Assembly (NCBI GenBank): GCA_022826905.1
Contig: JAJDUA010000034.1
Span: forward strand, 1-64,000
Reading direction: 5' to 3'
DNA length: 64,000 nucleotides
DNA from: Candidatus Dadabacteria bacterium
GTDB taxonomy: Bacteria > Desulfobacterota_D > UBA1144 > Nemesobacterales > Nemesobacteraceae
The position numbers and the translations under genes were made by a program. Positions 9,980 to 17,580 of this stretch are shown here, in pieces. Under the pieces are notes generated by a model. The model ran no database searches. It was not told where the DNA came from and saw only the letters and a program-made list of their open reading frames with translations. Position 1 is the stretch's first letter, and each line of letters begins with the position of its first letter.

Positions 9980-10111
9980 ATGTGCTTGCGGTCTGAAGTT
10001 CTGAGATTTGATTCTGACATGGAGCTCGACGCTAGGTTCTTCCATAAATATAAGGACGAGAGTTGCGATGCTCCGTCCCTAGTTCCAAATACGGATTCCC
10101 AGCCACGATGA
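9980..10111 (+). CDS. Possible 43-aa upstream ORF coupled to the AlbA_2 gene
   Basis: An ATG at 9980, 10 bases after GGAAG, opens a 43-codon frame whose TGA overlaps the AlbA_2 start as ATGA (10108-10111). The overlap would let ribosomes pass from one frame to the next and would explain why the larger gene has no obvious ribosome site. The peptide has no recognisable motif, and the frame may be open by chance. Confidence 0.3.
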   Translation: MCLRSEVLRFDSDMELDARFFHKYKDESCDAPSLVPNTDSQPR

Positions 10112-11322
10112 CAAGAACAGAACTTCTGGAAATTATAGCCAACGGTGAGAATTCGGGCGTTGAGTTCAAACGCGACACCTTGCGAAACTACAACCTGGCA
10201 AAAGAACTTGTCGCCTTTTCCAATCTCGACGGCGGAATGGTGCTTCTTGGCGTTGAGGATGACGGAACCGTATCGGGCCTTACCCGGGACCGTCTTGAAC
10301 AATGGGTAATGAATGCGTGCAGGGACAAGATCAGACCGGGCATAATACCGTTTTTTGAAATAATAAAAGAAGTGGAACCCGGCAAGGATGTCGCAATTGT
10401 ACGTGTTCCGCGCAGCAGCCACGTACACAGCCAATGGCATAATAACGGACACACTTACTATATAAGGGTAGGAACGCAAAGCCGGGAATCAACTCAGGAG
10501 GAACTTGGGCGGTTATTCCAGCAGCGGGGCATGATTCGCGCTGAAACGCAGCCTGTTTCCGGAACGACAATCAATGACCTTGACCGTCGCCGCCTTAAGG
10601 ATTACTTCGGACGTGTTCGCCAGCAGGAGGTTCCCGGTGACGGTGACGACGCGGGATGGCTGAATCTTCTGATAAATACCGAAATTTTAACGGAAGAGGG
10701 AATAACTCTCGCCGGCATTCTGCTGTTCGGAATCACGCCGAACCGGTATCTGCCCCAAGCCGGAATTGACGCCGTCGCATACCAGGGGACGGAAAAGGAA
10801 TACGAGGCAAAAGAACGAAAACAGCTACGGGGGGCAATGACGCCGCTTATGGACCCCAGCGGAACCCTTCTTGAGGCGGGCCTAGTGGAGCAGGCGGTGA
10901 GTTTTGTCCGCCGAAACACACCCGTGCATTCCTATCTCGAAGACGGAGCGCGTCGTGTGGATACTCCGACGTACCCGGAGGAAGTAATCAGGGAGACCAT
11001 AGTAAATGCCCTGATTCACAGAGACTATCTTCTTTCAGGTACTGATATTGAGCTTGCGATTTACGAAGACCGGCTGGAAGTAATCTCGCCCGGAAAGCTT
11101 CCAAACGGCATAACACCGGAACGCATGCGCCTCGGTACCCGGGCAGCCCGGAACAATCTGCTCAAGGATTTTATGCGCGACTACAGATATCTGGAGCATA
11201 TGGGAATGGGCGTACCCAGAAAAATCATAAAAGGAATGAAGGAGCACAACGGCTCTGACCCCGAACTGATTGAAGAAAACGAACGTTTTACGGTACGGCT
11301 GTTTTCAACAAAGAACCCTTAA
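10108..11322 (+). CDS. AlbA_2-domain putative DNA-binding protein (RecG-like transcriptional regulator family)
   Basis: The product is about 404 residues. An AlbA_2 (Schlafen-like) domain at about residues 10-115 is shown by GVEFKRD, LAKELVAFSNLDGGMVLLGV and YYIRVGTQSRES. The C-terminal part from about residue 290 contains RETIVNALIHRDY and EVISPGKLPNGI, the degenerate GHKL ATPase-like region often annotated HATPase_c_4. Proteins of this layout are usually called ATP-binding regulators; some Schlafen-like relatives act in defence. It sits alone between two copies of the cytochrome c gene end, so it was probably acquired horizontally. ATG 10108 fits the family start; a longer frame from 10063 is possible. 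Its direct targets cannot be read from the sequence. Confidence 0.85.
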   Translation: MTRTELLEIIANGENSGVEFKRDTLRNYNLAKELVAFSNLDGGMVLLGVEDDGTVSGLTRDRLEQWVMNACRDKIRPGIIPFFEIIKEVEPGKDVAIVRVPRSSHVHSQWHNNGHTYYIRVGTQSRESTQEELGRLFQQRGMIRAETQPVSGTTINDLDRRRLKDYFGRVRQQEVPGDGDDAGWLNLLINTEILTEEGITLAGILLFGITPNRYLPQAGIDAVAYQGTEKEYEAKERKQLRGAMTPLMDPSGTLLEAGLVEQAVSFVRRNTPVHSYLEDGARRVDTPTYPEEVIRETIVNALIHRDYLLSGTDIELAIYEDRLEVISPGKLPNGITPERMRLGTRAARNNLLKDFMRDYRYLEHMGMGVPRKIIKGMKEHNGSDPELIEENERFTVRLFSTKNP

Positions 11323-13578: not shown

Positions 13579-13625
13579 TATTATCCTCCTCGCTTTCGGG
13601 TAAGAAACCCTGCTTTTTTAACTTA

Positions 13626-13665
13626 CGTTATATAATAACCCATTATGAGCAACGGAAAATCCTTT
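13626..13665 (+). repeat. 40-bp perfect direct repeat, left copy (nitrilase promoter and first codons)
   Basis: These 40 bases are identical to 15782-15821, which hold the TATAAT element and the first seven codons (MSNGKSF) of the nitrilase gene. The preceding about 20 bases are also similar (CCTGC plus a T-rich run). The copy carries its own ATG at 13645 in a chimeric 76-codon frame that leaves nitrilase similarity after seven residues. The repeat bounds the DprA/PRTase/nucleotidyltransferase island, and its TATAAT (13631-13636) could serve as promoter for that island. Confidence 0.92.
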
Positions 13666-13846
13666 GCGGTGGCGGAGCACGGTGATTCCGTACTTGTGAG
13701 GGGTGAACCAGCAGAGACCTTCATGGCTGCGGAAATACCATGTAAACTATTTGGCCGGGAACTGAATTCCCTCGTAAAAATCATCTTTGTGCTGGCATGC
13801 GGGTATTGGAGCGGAAATCAAGAATCCGGCCCGCGTGGAGATTTTC

Positions 13847-14740
13847 ATGAGCGAGAAACTTCTTTTCGAACCTGAAAAACCGGAACTGCCATCCGTCTCC
13901 GCCTTCAGGGAAATGGGTGCCTACGAAGCGCTTTGGAGCGGGAAGGCCATGTCTTTTAAGAAGCTTGCCGAAATGCGCCGCGGTCCGGAATCGGTTCTGT
14001 CCGATTTCGTTGACGAGGCAACGGCCTATGAGTTTGCTGGCCGCGTCCGCGGCTTGCTTGCGGATGCTGGAGTCGATCAATTCGGAGTCCGTGTTTACGG
14101 TACATGGGAATACCCCGAAGGGCTTCGCGATGCCGCTCATCCTCTTGAACTGCTCTATTTCCAGGGATTGTGGGACTTAGTTTACACGAGATCGGTTTCC
14201 GTCGTGGGCACTCGCAACCCGTCTGCGAAGGGGAAGGCCCGGACGCGCAGCCTCGTCAGAAAACTGGTCAAAGACGGGTTCACCATAGTTTCGGGGCTGG
14301 CCTCGGGGATTGATACGGTCGCACATACTGCCGCGATCGAAAATGGTGGGTGGACGATAGCGGTGATAGGTACTCCTCTTTCGGAGACCTACCCTAAAGA
14401 AAATGCGGAACTTCAGAGGCGTATCGCGAAAGAGCATCTGCTCATAAGCCAGATTCCTGTATGGCGATACTCTCAGCAGGGACCTCAAGGTAACCGATTC
14501 TTTTTTCCGCAGCGCAACGTGACGATGTCCGCGCTTGCCGAAGCGACAGTCATTGTCGAAGCTGGCGAGACTTCGGGAACGCGGTTTCAGGCTGAAGCGG
14601 CCGTCGAGCAGGGCAGGAAACTTTTCATTCTGGACAGTTGCTTTCGAAACCCCGCTCTTACCTGGCCCGAAAAGTTTGCGAGTAAAGGAGCCGTGCGGGT
14701 TGCCGACTATGAAGACATAAGGAGATACCTTGGTTGTTAA
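13847..14740 (+). CDS. DprA/Smf-like SLOG-fold protein
   Basis: The product is 297 residues. A Rossmann-type DprA domain from about residue 110 has SVVGTRNPSAKGKARTRSLV, GFTIVSGLASGIDTVAHTAA, IAVIGTPLSETYP, FFPQRN and EAGETSGTRFQAEAA, all core DprA motifs. In competent bacteria DprA loads RecA on incoming single-stranded DNA; related SLOG proteins in defence loci sense or process nucleotides. The N-terminal about 100 residues do not match the usual SAM-like domain that I would expect in housekeeping DprA. The start at 13847 is set by GGAG six bases upstream. The next gene overlaps the 3' end by 11 bases. Its place in a repeat-bounded island beside a PRTase and a nucleotidyltransferase argues for a specialised role rather than transformation. 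Confidence 0.85.
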   Translation: MSEKLLFEPEKPELPSVSAFREMGAYEALWSGKAMSFKKLAEMRRGPESVLSDFVDEATAYEFAGRVRGLLADAGVDQFGVRVYGTWEYPEGLRDAAHPLELLYFQGLWDLVYTRSVSVVGTRNPSAKGKARTRSLVRKLVKDGFTIVSGLASGIDTVAHTAAIENGGWTIAVIGTPLSETYPKENAELQRRIAKEHLLISQIPVWRYSQQGPQGNRFFFPQRNVTMSALAEATVIVEAGETSGTRFQAEAAVEQGRKLFILDSCFRNPALTWPEKFASKGAVRVADYEDIRRYLGC

Positions 14741-15386
14741 GCTTTCCGAAATCGATGATCTTTCCCGCCCGGAGCATCATTTTCTTGAGCCCGGTGACAG
14801 ATGTTTCTTTCTTTGGGAATATACCCCGAACCGCGGCTACAAGTTCAGCGAAGTCAACAATCTGATTCTCAATTTCAAGAAGTCCCCAGAGAGACAAGGC
14901 CGACCCGAATGGCGGTACAAGGAACAGGCGATAGAGAAAATAGCAGAAGCATTTCTAAAATCACTTAGAGCCGAGTGGCTTCGGAGCGTAACGCTGGTTC
15001 CGATTCCTCCGTCGGAAGTCAGAGGATCTCCGCGGTATGACGACCGCATGCTCAGAGTGCTCAGGAGACTGGGTGAAAAGTTCCGCCGCAACCTTGATAT
15101 CCGCGAACTGATTCTGCAACTCGAAAGCACCGTCGCGGATCACAAAGCCGATCAGCGTCAGTCTCTTGAAGATTTGATTAGCAACTATCGTTTTAACGAA
15201 CAAGCCGCTCTTCCCCCGCCGAAGAGAATCGCTTTGTTCGATGATCTTCTCACTACGGGAAGGCACTTTAAAGCCGCTGAACATTTGCTCCAAAGGCGGT
15301 ATCCGGACACGGAAATTCTGGGAATTTTTGTGGCTCGCAGTTCGCGGGCGGCGATTATTAAGGAGATGTTCATGTCAGAAAAATGA
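14730..15386 (+). CDS. Phosphoribosyltransferase-fold protein (ComF-like)
   Basis: The product is 218 residues. The PRPP-binding loop is ALFDDLLTTGRHFKAAEHLL (about residues 168-187), with two acidic residues and the TTG turn, and VTLVPIPPSEVRGSPRYDDR earlier matches the ComF/orotate-type PRTase core. It uses a TTG start at 14730 within the end of the DprA-like gene, after AGGAG, so the two are translationally coupled. Type I PRTases transfer or recognise phosphoribosyl groups; ComF proteins act in competence, but defence-linked PRTases also exist. The substrate is unknown. The C-terminus MFMSEK overlaps the start region of the next gene. Confidence 0.82.
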   Translation: MVVKLSEIDDLSRPEHHFLEPGDRCFFLWEYTPNRGYKFSEVNNLILNFKKSPERQGRPEWRYKEQAIEKIAEAFLKSLRAEWLRSVTLVPIPPSEVRGSPRYDDRMLRVLRRLGEKFRRNLDIRELILQLESTVADHKADQRQSLEDLISNYRFNEQAALPPPKRIALFDDLLTTGRHFKAAEHLLQRRYPDTEILGIFVARSSRAAIIKEMFMSEK

Positions 15387-15708
15387 GAGCGCTTCTTCGG
15401 GATGGGTTGTTGACGAGTATAATTTTTGCCTACCCTTTAAAAAGCATCTTCCGAATACCCGCGTCTGGGTATACGGTTCCCGTGCTAGGCTCACCGCAAA
15501 AAAGAGTTCGGATCTTGATATGGTGGTATTCGCCCGAAGCGAGCAGAGAAGACAAGTCTGCGATCTTCAAGAAGCTCTTGAACAAAGCGATCTTCCGTTT
15601 CGGGTGGACCTGTTTGTGTGGGATGATATTCCTGAGGGATTCCAGAAGAAAATCGAGTCAGATCACGCAACCTTGGTCACTTCGGACCACGAAACCCAAG
15701 CGCTATGA
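15372..15708 (+). CDS. MNT-type nucleotidyltransferase-domain protein, start unresolved
   Basis: The frame ending at 15708 encodes the minimal nucleotidyltransferase core: VWVYGSRARLTAKKSSDLDM, with the GSR and the D-x-D pair that bind metal and nucleotide, then LPFRVDLFVWDDIPEGFQKK with the third acidic residue. No ATG lies in frame close to the domain. An AGGAG followed by ATG at 15372 would start it, but that frame meets TGA after four codons. Dropping one base in the A run at 15379-15383 would join it to the domain. So the gene uses a non-standard start, relies on frameshifting, contains a sequencing error, or is freshly broken. MNT proteins often pair with HEPN toxins, but no HEPN gene is next to it. 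It closes the repeat-bounded island. Confidence 0.65.
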
Positions 15709-15781
15709 AAAAGAGGCGGGCCACGCCCCGATTCAAAAGAGAAACAGAAGCTCGGAATGAGCCTGCCTTTTCTCAAATTTT

Positions 15782-15821
15782 CGTTATATAATAACCCATT
15801 ATGAGCAACGGAAAATCCTTT
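15782..15821 (+). repeat. 40-bp perfect direct repeat, right copy
   Basis: This copy is the functional one. It contains TATAAT at 15787-15792 and the first seven codons of the nitrilase gene. It matches 13626-13665 base for base and marks the right edge of the island. Confidence 0.92.
15787..15800 (+). promoter_or_regulatory. TATAAT element eight bases before the nitrilase ATG (leaderless-type start)
   Basis: TATAAT at 15787-15792 is followed by eight bases and then the ATG at 15801. No Shine-Dalgarno sequence is present, so transcription would start at or next to the start codon. I see no good -35 hexamer. Confidence 0.45.
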
Positions 15822-16706
15822 ACGGCGGCGACGGTGCAGGCCGCTCCCGTTTTTCTCGACAAAAAGGGCACGGTCGATAAAGTCCTCAAACTCATAAAGG
15901 AGGCTGCGGGAAACGGGGCGGAACTCGTGGTTTTCCCCGAGGCCTTCATACCCACTTATCCCTACTGGCCCAAGGACCTCGGGTTCGGAGCCGAGAAGAA
16001 ACTCACCATGGACGCCCACGTCGAGCTTCACAGAAACTCGGTCGAGGTTCCTGGAGAGGACACGAAAAGAATCGGCGACGCAGCGAGGCGTGCCAAGACC
16101 TGCGTCGTAATAGGGGTTAACGAAAAAGAGGGAGGAACCCTCTATAACACCATACTCTACTTCGGCAAGGACGGCACCCTTTTGGGCAGGCACAGAAAGC
16201 TCATGTCGATTGACAGCGAGAAATGCGTCTGGGCGAACGGAACCGCCGAGGACGTAAGGGTGTTCGACACCGAAGTCGGAAAAATAGGGGGGCTTTTCTG
16301 CTACGAGCACCACATGACCCTTGAGAAGTACGCGATGTTCACCAAGGGGGAGCAGGTGCACGTGGGGCTTTGGGGAGGGCACGCATTCGTTAAGGACACT
16401 ATGGATTTCGCAAGCCGCCAGTACGCGTTTGAGGGGCAGGTGTTTGTGATAATCTCAGCCGGGTTCATAGAAGAGGACATGATTCCCGACTCCTTTCCCC
16501 TGAAAGAGCATACGATCTGGGACTACCCCGGGGGAAGCGGCATATTAAACCCGAGAGGGCAGTACATCGCCGGTCCCGTGTACGGAAAGGAAGAGATCCT
16601 CTACGCCGAAATAGAGCTTGACCAGATAATAAGGGCAAAGACCGTCATAGACTCCGTTGGGCACTTCTCAAGACCGGACATATTCAGATTCGAGATAATG
16701 GAGTGA
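15801..16706 (+). CDS. Nitrilase-superfamily carbon-nitrogen hydrolase
   Basis: This 301-residue protein has the catalytic triad of the nitrilase superfamily: Glu in ELVVFPEAF, Lys in LLGRHRKLM and Cys in GGLFCYEH. Size, the GHAFVKDT region and the TYPYWPK segment after the catalytic Glu are like the aliphatic/aromatic nitrilase branch, which hydrolyses nitriles to acids and ammonia. Amidase activity cannot be excluded. The gene appears to be transcribed from a TATAAT placed so close that the mRNA may lack a leader. Its promoter and first codons are duplicated on the far side of the adjacent island, showing that the island entered exactly here without destroying the gene. Confidence 0.88.
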   Translation: MSNGKSFTAATVQAAPVFLDKKGTVDKVLKLIKEAAGNGAELVVFPEAFIPTYPYWPKDLGFGAEKKLTMDAHVELHRNSVEVPGEDTKRIGDAARRAKTCVVIGVNEKEGGTLYNTILYFGKDGTLLGRHRKLMSIDSEKCVWANGTAEDVRVFDTEVGKIGGLFCYEHHMTLEKYAMFTKGEQVHVGLWGGHAFVKDTMDFASRQYAFEGQVFVIISAGFIEEDMIPDSFPLKEHTIWDYPGGSGILNPRGQYIAGPVYGKEEILYAEIELDQIIRAKTVIDSVGHFSRPDIFRFEIME

Positions 16707-16957: not shown

Positions 16958-17344
16958 CTACCACAATCGATTGACTCCATACCGATCAAACACCGCATCA
17001 GCCGACACAACCACTAAATCGCGCGCCAAGGCCTGAGCAATGAGCATGCGGTCGAACGGATCGCGATGCGGGCCAGGCAGCAAGCCAGCACGTTCGGCAT
17101 CAGCAACACTGATCATGAGTTCCCGGAAGCCTTGACGGGCAATGTTGCCGACAACATCAAAGGCTGCCACGGCTCCTTCGGGAAGTTTGCCGAGCCTGTA
17201 CTTGGTAGTAATTTCCCAAGCAGACGCCGCGCTGACAAAGATGTCGTTTTCCTCGTCCGCAATCATCCGGCGCGTCGGGTCGGACAGACGCTCACTGTCT
17301 GCAAGCCACCAAAGAAAAGCATGGGTGTCCAGCAACGCCCGCAA
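16958..17344 (-). CDS. PIN-domain ribonuclease toxin of a type II toxin-antitoxin pair (VapC-like)
   Basis: The PIN domain shows its acidic residues in order: Asp in LLDTHAFLWW, Glu in SAWEI, Asp in DPFDRMLIAQA and Asp in VVSADAVF. PIN toxins cut RNA, often tRNA or rRNA. I chose the TTG at 17344, nine bases after GGGAGGG; a TTG at 17362 would add six residues and would place the start ahead of that site. The gene follows the antitoxin directly and the two signals overlap, the usual arrangement. Confidence in the family is high and in the exact start moderate. Confidence 0.88.
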   Translation of the reverse strand: MRALLDTHAFLWWLADSERLSDPTRRMIADEENDIFVSAASAWEITTKYRLGKLPEGAVAAFDVVGNIARQGFRELMISVADAERAGLLPGPHRDPFDRMLIAQALARDLVVVSADAVFDRYGVNRLW

Positions 17345-17346
17345 CG

Positions 17347-17580
17347 CTATTTTCCCTCCCAAGCTCCCAGATCATCCTCCGACAGCGGCTCGAAAAAATC
17401 CTCCGGCAGGACAATCTTCCCCTTGAGGACATCGGGCTGCCGTTTGCCTCTGGGCTTGCAGCCGACAAGTCGCGCAACCGGTTCCCCCCTGCGGGCGATC
17501 ACGATTTCCTCGCCCGCCTCGACCTGCGCCAGAAGGCGAGACAGATGAGTTTTAGCTTGGTGAACATTAACAACAGACAT
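17347..17580 (-). CDS. Phd/YefM-type antitoxin
   Basis: The 77-residue product begins MSVVNVHQAKTHLSRLLAQV, continues with GEEIVIARRGEPVARLV, and matches the Phd/YefM DNA-binding fold. The C-terminal tail (PEDFFEPLSEDDLGAWEGK) is the flexible toxin-binding region. It should neutralise the VapC-like protein encoded just downstream and repress the pair. The ATG at 17580 is preceded by GAGG at about ten bases. The gene pair sits between the nitrilase gene and tRNA-Gln, a common place for accessory cassettes. Confidence 0.9.
   Translation of the reverse strand: MSVVNVHQAKTHLSRLLAQVEAGEEIVIARRGEPVARLVGCKPRGKRQPDVLKGKIVLPEDFFEPLSEDDLGAWEGK

What the first reader, a model, noticed from the sequence alone, without database searches (positions are those of the whole stretch)
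13626..15821. Repeat-bounded island encoding DprA-like, PRTase and MNT nucleotidyltransferase proteins
Three same-direction, overlapping genes join a SLOG/DprA fold, a PRPP-binding fold and a minimal nucleotidyltransferase. The set lies exactly between two identical 40-base copies of the nitrilase promoter and first seven codons. The DprA-like protein lacks the familiar N-terminal domain and no competence gene is near. SLOG and PRTase folds occur in nucleotide-based conflict systems, so this may be an undescribed defence or nucleotide-signalling module. I cannot match it to a named system.
Basis: partly seen in the sequence, partly recalled or inferred. Interest (0 to 1): 0.82.

Follow-up and report, generated by a model that had tools for sequence, protein, structure and literature searches.

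The report
ShosTA toxin-antitoxin beside a broken antitoxin
The island is a known two-gene anti-phage toxin-antitoxin system (ShosTA) that landed inside another toxin-antitoxin cassette next to a nitrilase gene in a sponge-associated bacterium; the apparent third gene is a fragment of the older cassette, so the three genes are not a new defence system.

Summary
Two exact 40-nt copies of the nitrilase promoter and first codons (13626-13665, 15782-15821) bracket three same-strand ORFs. The first two genes are a named system: PADLOC calls them ShosA (E 6e-93) and ShosT (E 2.5e-47). ShosT has ShosA beside it in 134 of 137 loci on plasmids, phages and chromosomes; the other three are cut by contig ends. 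The third ORF is not a native partner: 0 of 137 ShosTA loci carry an MNT. Thirteen same-genus (Candidatus Dadabacteria) genomes explain it. Five have an empty site with one repeat. Five carry a repeat-bounded HEPN (HI0074/PF08780) + MNT cassette. Three carry a diverged ShosTA at the site, one of them beside HEPN-MNT. One has a TnpB element there. The window is a chimera: ShosTA replaced HEPN and the first ~20 codons of MNT. Residues before the MNT core are ShosTA 3'-flank DNA, alignable to a second ShosTA copy in G010. Most likely function: ShosTA abortive infection (ShosT toxin, ShosA antitoxin), driven by the duplicated nitrilase promoter, plus MNT debris. New member of a known kind; the repeat-flanked cassette turnover at nitrilase is the only mildly new part.

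The parts
13620..13674 (+). Left copy of the duplicated nitrilase promoter and 5' coding end (exact core 13626-13665); its upstream flank matches the empty site, its downstream end matches the left end of the HEPN-MNT cassettes up to about 13681
13645..13875 (+). Short leader ORF (76 aa) starting at the duplicated nitrilase ATG and running into the start of shosA; probably not a functional protein
   Evidence: sequence reading
13722..15431 (+). ShosTA unit as delimited by DNA homology to the second, damaged ShosTA copy in G010 contig C131
13847..14740 (+). shosA: DprA-like (SLOG/Rossmann) antitoxin, 297 aa, ATG start with a GGAG upstream
   Evidence: PADLOC PDLC03961 E 5.8e-93; PF02481 E 1.2e-54; below TIGR00732 dprA cut-off, 162.7 vs 191.15; alignment A2
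14730..15386 (+). shosT: phosphoribosyltransferase-fold toxin, 218 aa, TTG start, overlaps shosA by 11 nt; PRPP-loop motif LFDDLLTTG intact
   Evidence: PADLOC PDLC03962 E 2.5e-47; alignment A1 with invariant D171, D172, T175, G177
15436..15708 (+). Truncated MNT (MntA/HI0073-like) nucleotidyltransferase remnant; catalytic GSRAR...SDLD motif kept, first ~20 residues and the HEPN partner gene lost
   Evidence: 88.9% aa identity to G001 MNT; DNA homology starts at 15436-15437; NF047752 E 8.8e-11, below cut-off
15709..15775 (+). 3' flank of the former HEPN-MNT cassette
   Evidence: DNA alignment with G001
15776..15830 (+). Right copy of the repeat, the working promoter and 5' end of the nitrilase gene (exact core 15782-15821)
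15801..16706 (+). Nitrilase (CN_hydrolase), intact here and found in all 13 same-genus genomes (in two pieces in G010)

Best explanation
The island is a ShosTA toxin-antitoxin/anti-phage module. It replaced most of an older HEPN-MNT (type VII-like) toxin-antitoxin cassette sitting between two copies of the nitrilase promoter/5' end. Shown here: the two ShosTA families, their near-universal pairing, the chimeric junctions (left between ~13681 and ~13722, right at ~15431-15436), the empty sites and intact HEPN-MNT cassettes in sister genomes, and the lack of MNT at other ShosTA loci. Inferred: ShosA restrains ShosT; on phage attack ShosT, a PRTase-fold enzyme, upsets purine nucleotide pools and stops or kills the cell, as reported for ShosTA elsewhere. 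Also inferred: the left repeat supplies a promoter for shosA-shosT, the right repeat keeps the nitrilase expressed, and the MNT fragment is debris with no function in the system.
For: PADLOC ShosA/ShosT hits, with the same best models for an E. coli plasmid pair and a Burkholderia phage pair. ShosA next to ShosT in 87/87 and 47/50 loci. MNT in 0/137 by HMM and by catalytic-motif scan, with positive controls. Intact HEPN (PF08780 E 5e-23) + MNT cassettes at the same site in G001, G010, G011, G012, G013. Window left and right ends both match that cassette, the middle does not. A second ShosTA copy on G010 C131 (ShosA 89% aa, DNA 82.7%) aligns with window ~13722-15431, including the non-coding stretch read as the MNT N-terminus. 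No HEPN DNA found in G000. Empty sites in G002 (nearest relative in the tree), G004, G005, G006, G008. Defence by DprA+PRTase against T7 and lambda: PMC9122126. ShosT/ShosA mechanism: PMC12593503 citing Pu et al. 2025.
Against: No activity was tested. The published mechanism is taken from a review of another ShosTA; the solved ShosA (9vzo) is a distant relative (profile E 3.4e-29) and no solved ShosT was found by sequence. The MNT fragment does not look long-decayed: dN/dS against intact MNTs is 0.09-0.17, like that among intact ones, with 4 synonymous and 1 nonsynonymous unique codon changes. So truncation is recent or the fragment is still used.
Confidence: 0.88

Rival explanations
1. Tripartite system: the truncated MNT was recruited as a third component that nucleotidylates ShosT or ShosA, giving a new regulated ShosTA variant.
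For: Catalytic motif intact; low dN/dS of the fragment; same strand, directly downstream; MNT enzymes do modify partner toxins (PMC7641770, PMC11586414).
Against: 0 of 137 other ShosTA loci carry an MNT; the fragment lost its N-terminus and has no good start codon; the residues before it are ShosTA 3' flank; its native partner HEPN sits with it in sister genomes.
Confidence: 0.06
2. Genuine DprA serving transformation or recombination, with a ComF-like PRTase.
For: PF02481 and weak ComF similarity. No other DprA above cut-off in G000.
Against: Scores below the dprA equivalog cut-off while matching ShosA far better. Nine of the 13 same-genus relatives have no ShosT, and eight of those nine have no DprA-family protein above the Pfam cut-off, so the genus does without one. 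Coupled to ShosT on plasmids and phages.
Confidence: 0.03
3. Assembly chimera in a metagenome-assembled genome joining ShosTA to HEPN-MNT DNA of another strain.
For: G000 is a draft genome of 69 contigs at 93% completeness; the junction occurs in only this genome.
Against: The MNT fragment and the ShosTA both differ by about 12-17% DNA from the nearest relative's copy, so no sampled donor strain fits; the locus lies inside an 85-kb contig; no long repeat lies at the inner junctions.
Confidence: 0.05

Closest known systems
ShosTA toxin-antitoxin / DprA-PRTase anti-phage system (PADLOC PDLC03961 + PDLC03962; P2-phage hotspot system in PMC9122126)
   Same: Same two families, same gene order, overlapping genes, found on mobile elements
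   Different: Sits in a chromosomal nitrilase locus of a Dadabacteria genome under a duplicated nitrilase promoter, with MNT debris downstream
HEPN-MNT (HepT/MntA, HI0074/HI0073) type VII toxin-antitoxin
   Same: Window 15436-15708 is the 3' part of such an MNT; sister genomes hold the full pair at the same site
   Different: HEPN gene and MNT start are missing in the window genome
PsyrTA
   Same: DprA-like antitoxin, related nucleotide-binding fold
   Different: PsyrA model scores much lower (E 4.8e-23 against 5.8e-93) and the toxin is ShosT-type

Membership tests
ShosTA | DprA-like ShosA antitoxin | tested here: met
   PDLC03961 E 5.8e-93, residues 23-293 of 297
ShosTA | PRTase ShosT toxin with PRPP-loop acidic motif | tested here: met
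   PDLC03962 E 2.5e-47; invariant DD..T.G in alignment A1
ShosTA | Adjacent, same-strand shosA-shosT order | tested here: met
   11-nt overlap; same order in 87/87 and 46/50 loci, one inverted, three cut by contig ends
ShosTA | Toxicity of ShosT relieved by ShosA; anti-phage activity | not testable with these tools
   needs experiment; literature for other members only
HEPN-MNT type VII TA | HEPN-fold toxin gene next to MNT | tested here: not met
   absent from the window island and not found in G000; present in sister genomes
HEPN-MNT type VII TA | Complete MNT with GS...D.D motif | tested here: not met
   motif present, first ~20 residues and start codon missing
Housekeeping DprA | Passes dprA equivalog cut-off | tested here: not met
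   TIGR00732 162.7 bits against 191.15
New three-gene defence module | Gene trio recurs in independent genomes | tested here: not met
   0 of 137 ShosTA loci with MNT; 0 of 13 same-genus genomes with this junction

The most novel reading that the evidence does not exclude
The duplicated nitrilase 5' end acts as a cassette-exchange site. Repeat-flanked toxin-antitoxin cassettes are gained, lost and swapped by recombination between nitrilase-promoter copies, each insertion borrowing that promoter while restoring the nitrilase gene. In the closely related G009/G011/G012/G013 clade, G012 has both cassettes, G009 only ShosTA, G011 and G013 only HEPN-MNT.
Probability: 0.3. Interest if true: 0.5.

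Novelty: new member of a known kind. Interest (0 to 1): 0.3.

Why it matters
It places ShosTA in sponge-associated Candidatus Dadabacteria and shows how a false 'three-gene system' can arise when one toxin-antitoxin module lands in another at a hotspot. If the repeat-flanked nitrilase site does exchange cassettes, it would be a simple integrase-free defence hotspot that can be followed across 14 related genomes.

Tried and rejected
Recurrence of the trio as a unit: none found in plasmids, phages, viral contigs or GTDB species genomes. Repeat as a short integrase target-site duplication: rejected as the simplest reading, because homology in G010 reaches about 85 nt, upstream homology adds up to ~40 nt in G000/G001, and no integrase lies in the island. 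MNT decay test by dN/dS: no sign of long decay, so it neither proves nor excludes recent loss. A +1 frameshift at AAAAATGA (about 15379-15386) fusing ShosT to MNT was considered and dropped once G010 C131 showed that this stretch is ShosTA 3' flank. No structure prediction was run, because sequence profiles settled the families.

Full report
Observation. The repeat is the nitrilase promoter plus first codons; a genome-wide search of G000 with the nitrilase and its 5' region returned only these two copies.

Identity of genes 1 and 2. PADLOC gives ShosA (PDLC03961, E 5.8e-93) and ShosT (PDLC03962, E 2.5e-47). The same two models are the best hits for a pair on an E. coli plasmid and one on Burkholderia phage Mana (Peduoviridae). 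Profile scans of 87 loci from plasmids, phages and species genomes, and of 50 viral contigs, found ShosA next to ShosT in 134; the remaining three start at a contig end. A DprA+PRTase system from a P2-like phage protected against T7 and lambda, and DprA homologs are the antitoxins of shosTA (PMC9122126). A 2025 review reports ShosT as a phosphoribosyl transferase and pyrophosphatase that disturbs purine metabolism, ShosA as DNA-binding, and T7 Gp0.7 as trigger (PMC12593503).

Identity of ORF 3. It is an MNT nucleotidyltransferase related to HI0073 and MntA. None of the 137 ShosTA loci carries one, by HMM or by the GS..R...SD.D motif, while positive controls were found.

The locus in the genus. 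In 13 same-genus genomes the SDR-nitrilase interval is: empty with one repeat (G002, G004, G005, G006, G008); repeat-HEPN-MNT-repeat (G001, G010, G011, G013); ShosTA then one repeat (G003, G009); ShosTA-repeat-HEPN-MNT-repeat (G012); a TnpB/OrfB element (G007). HEPN is PF08780 (E 5e-23). On a tree of the three flanking genes the nearest relative of the window genome is G002 (support 85), which is empty.

The chimera. The window's left end matches the HEPN-MNT cassette to about 13681 and its right end from 15436. The middle, ~13722 to ~15431, matches a second and damaged ShosTA on G010 contig C131, at 82.7% DNA identity over the main block. There the DNA that is read as the residues before the MNT core in the window is ShosTA 3' flank. 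So ShosTA replaced HEPN and the first ~20 codons of MNT. No HEPN DNA was found elsewhere in G000.

What stays open. The MNT fragment shows purifying selection like intact copies (dN/dS 0.09-0.17), so its loss is recent or it retains some use. The repeat duplication spans about 85 nt in G010 and reaches further upstream in G000/G001, which fits duplication or homologous recombination better than a short target-site duplication. Cassette differences in the closely related G009, G011, G012, G013 (flanking-gene identity 96-98%) fit repeat-mediated loss or exchange, but this was not tested directly.

DprA control. Only ShosA passes the PF02481 cut-off in G000, and empty-site relatives show only sub-cut-off hits, so the genus appears to lack a housekeeping DprA and ShosA is an accessory protein.

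Noticed in passing
window 16958-17580, - strand: PIN/VapC toxin with a Phd/YefM antitoxin just downstream of the nitrilase; both present in G002, only the antitoxin found in G001, G007, G008, absent in others. The nitrilase gene is flanked on both sides by variable toxin-antitoxin modules.
   Followed up: partly
window 10063-11322, + strand: Schlafen/AlbA_2 plus RecG-C-like HATPase protein; patchy in the genus (found in G003, G010, G013 within the fetched stretches).
   Followed up: partly
L028 8102-9343 (G007): IS605-type TnpB element sits just after the -10 box of the nitrilase promoter, at the same spot used by the toxin-antitoxin cassettes; coordinates are in the orientation of the nitrilase.
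   Followed up: partly
L140 (G010 C131) 843-2342: Second ShosTA copy with a disrupted shosT, near an XRE-type regulator and an ImmA/IrrE-like peptidase.
   Followed up: partly
L036 3100-6872, L037 3097-6889: In Rhizobiaceae plasmids ShosTA lies tail to tail with a second DprA + PRTase pair; L069, L073, L082, L106, L107, L114 have a second DprA-like gene in tandem.
   Followed up: no
G000-G013: Genus appears to lack a housekeeping DprA (only sub-cut-off PF02481 hits outside ShosA, except G013 C1:4311-4919).
   Followed up: partly
L022 2093-2218 (G001) and the left repeat of G010 in L031: A leader ORF starting at the duplicated nitrilase ATG ends in TCATGA overlapping the HEPN start, suggesting translational coupling (read by eye).
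   Followed up: no
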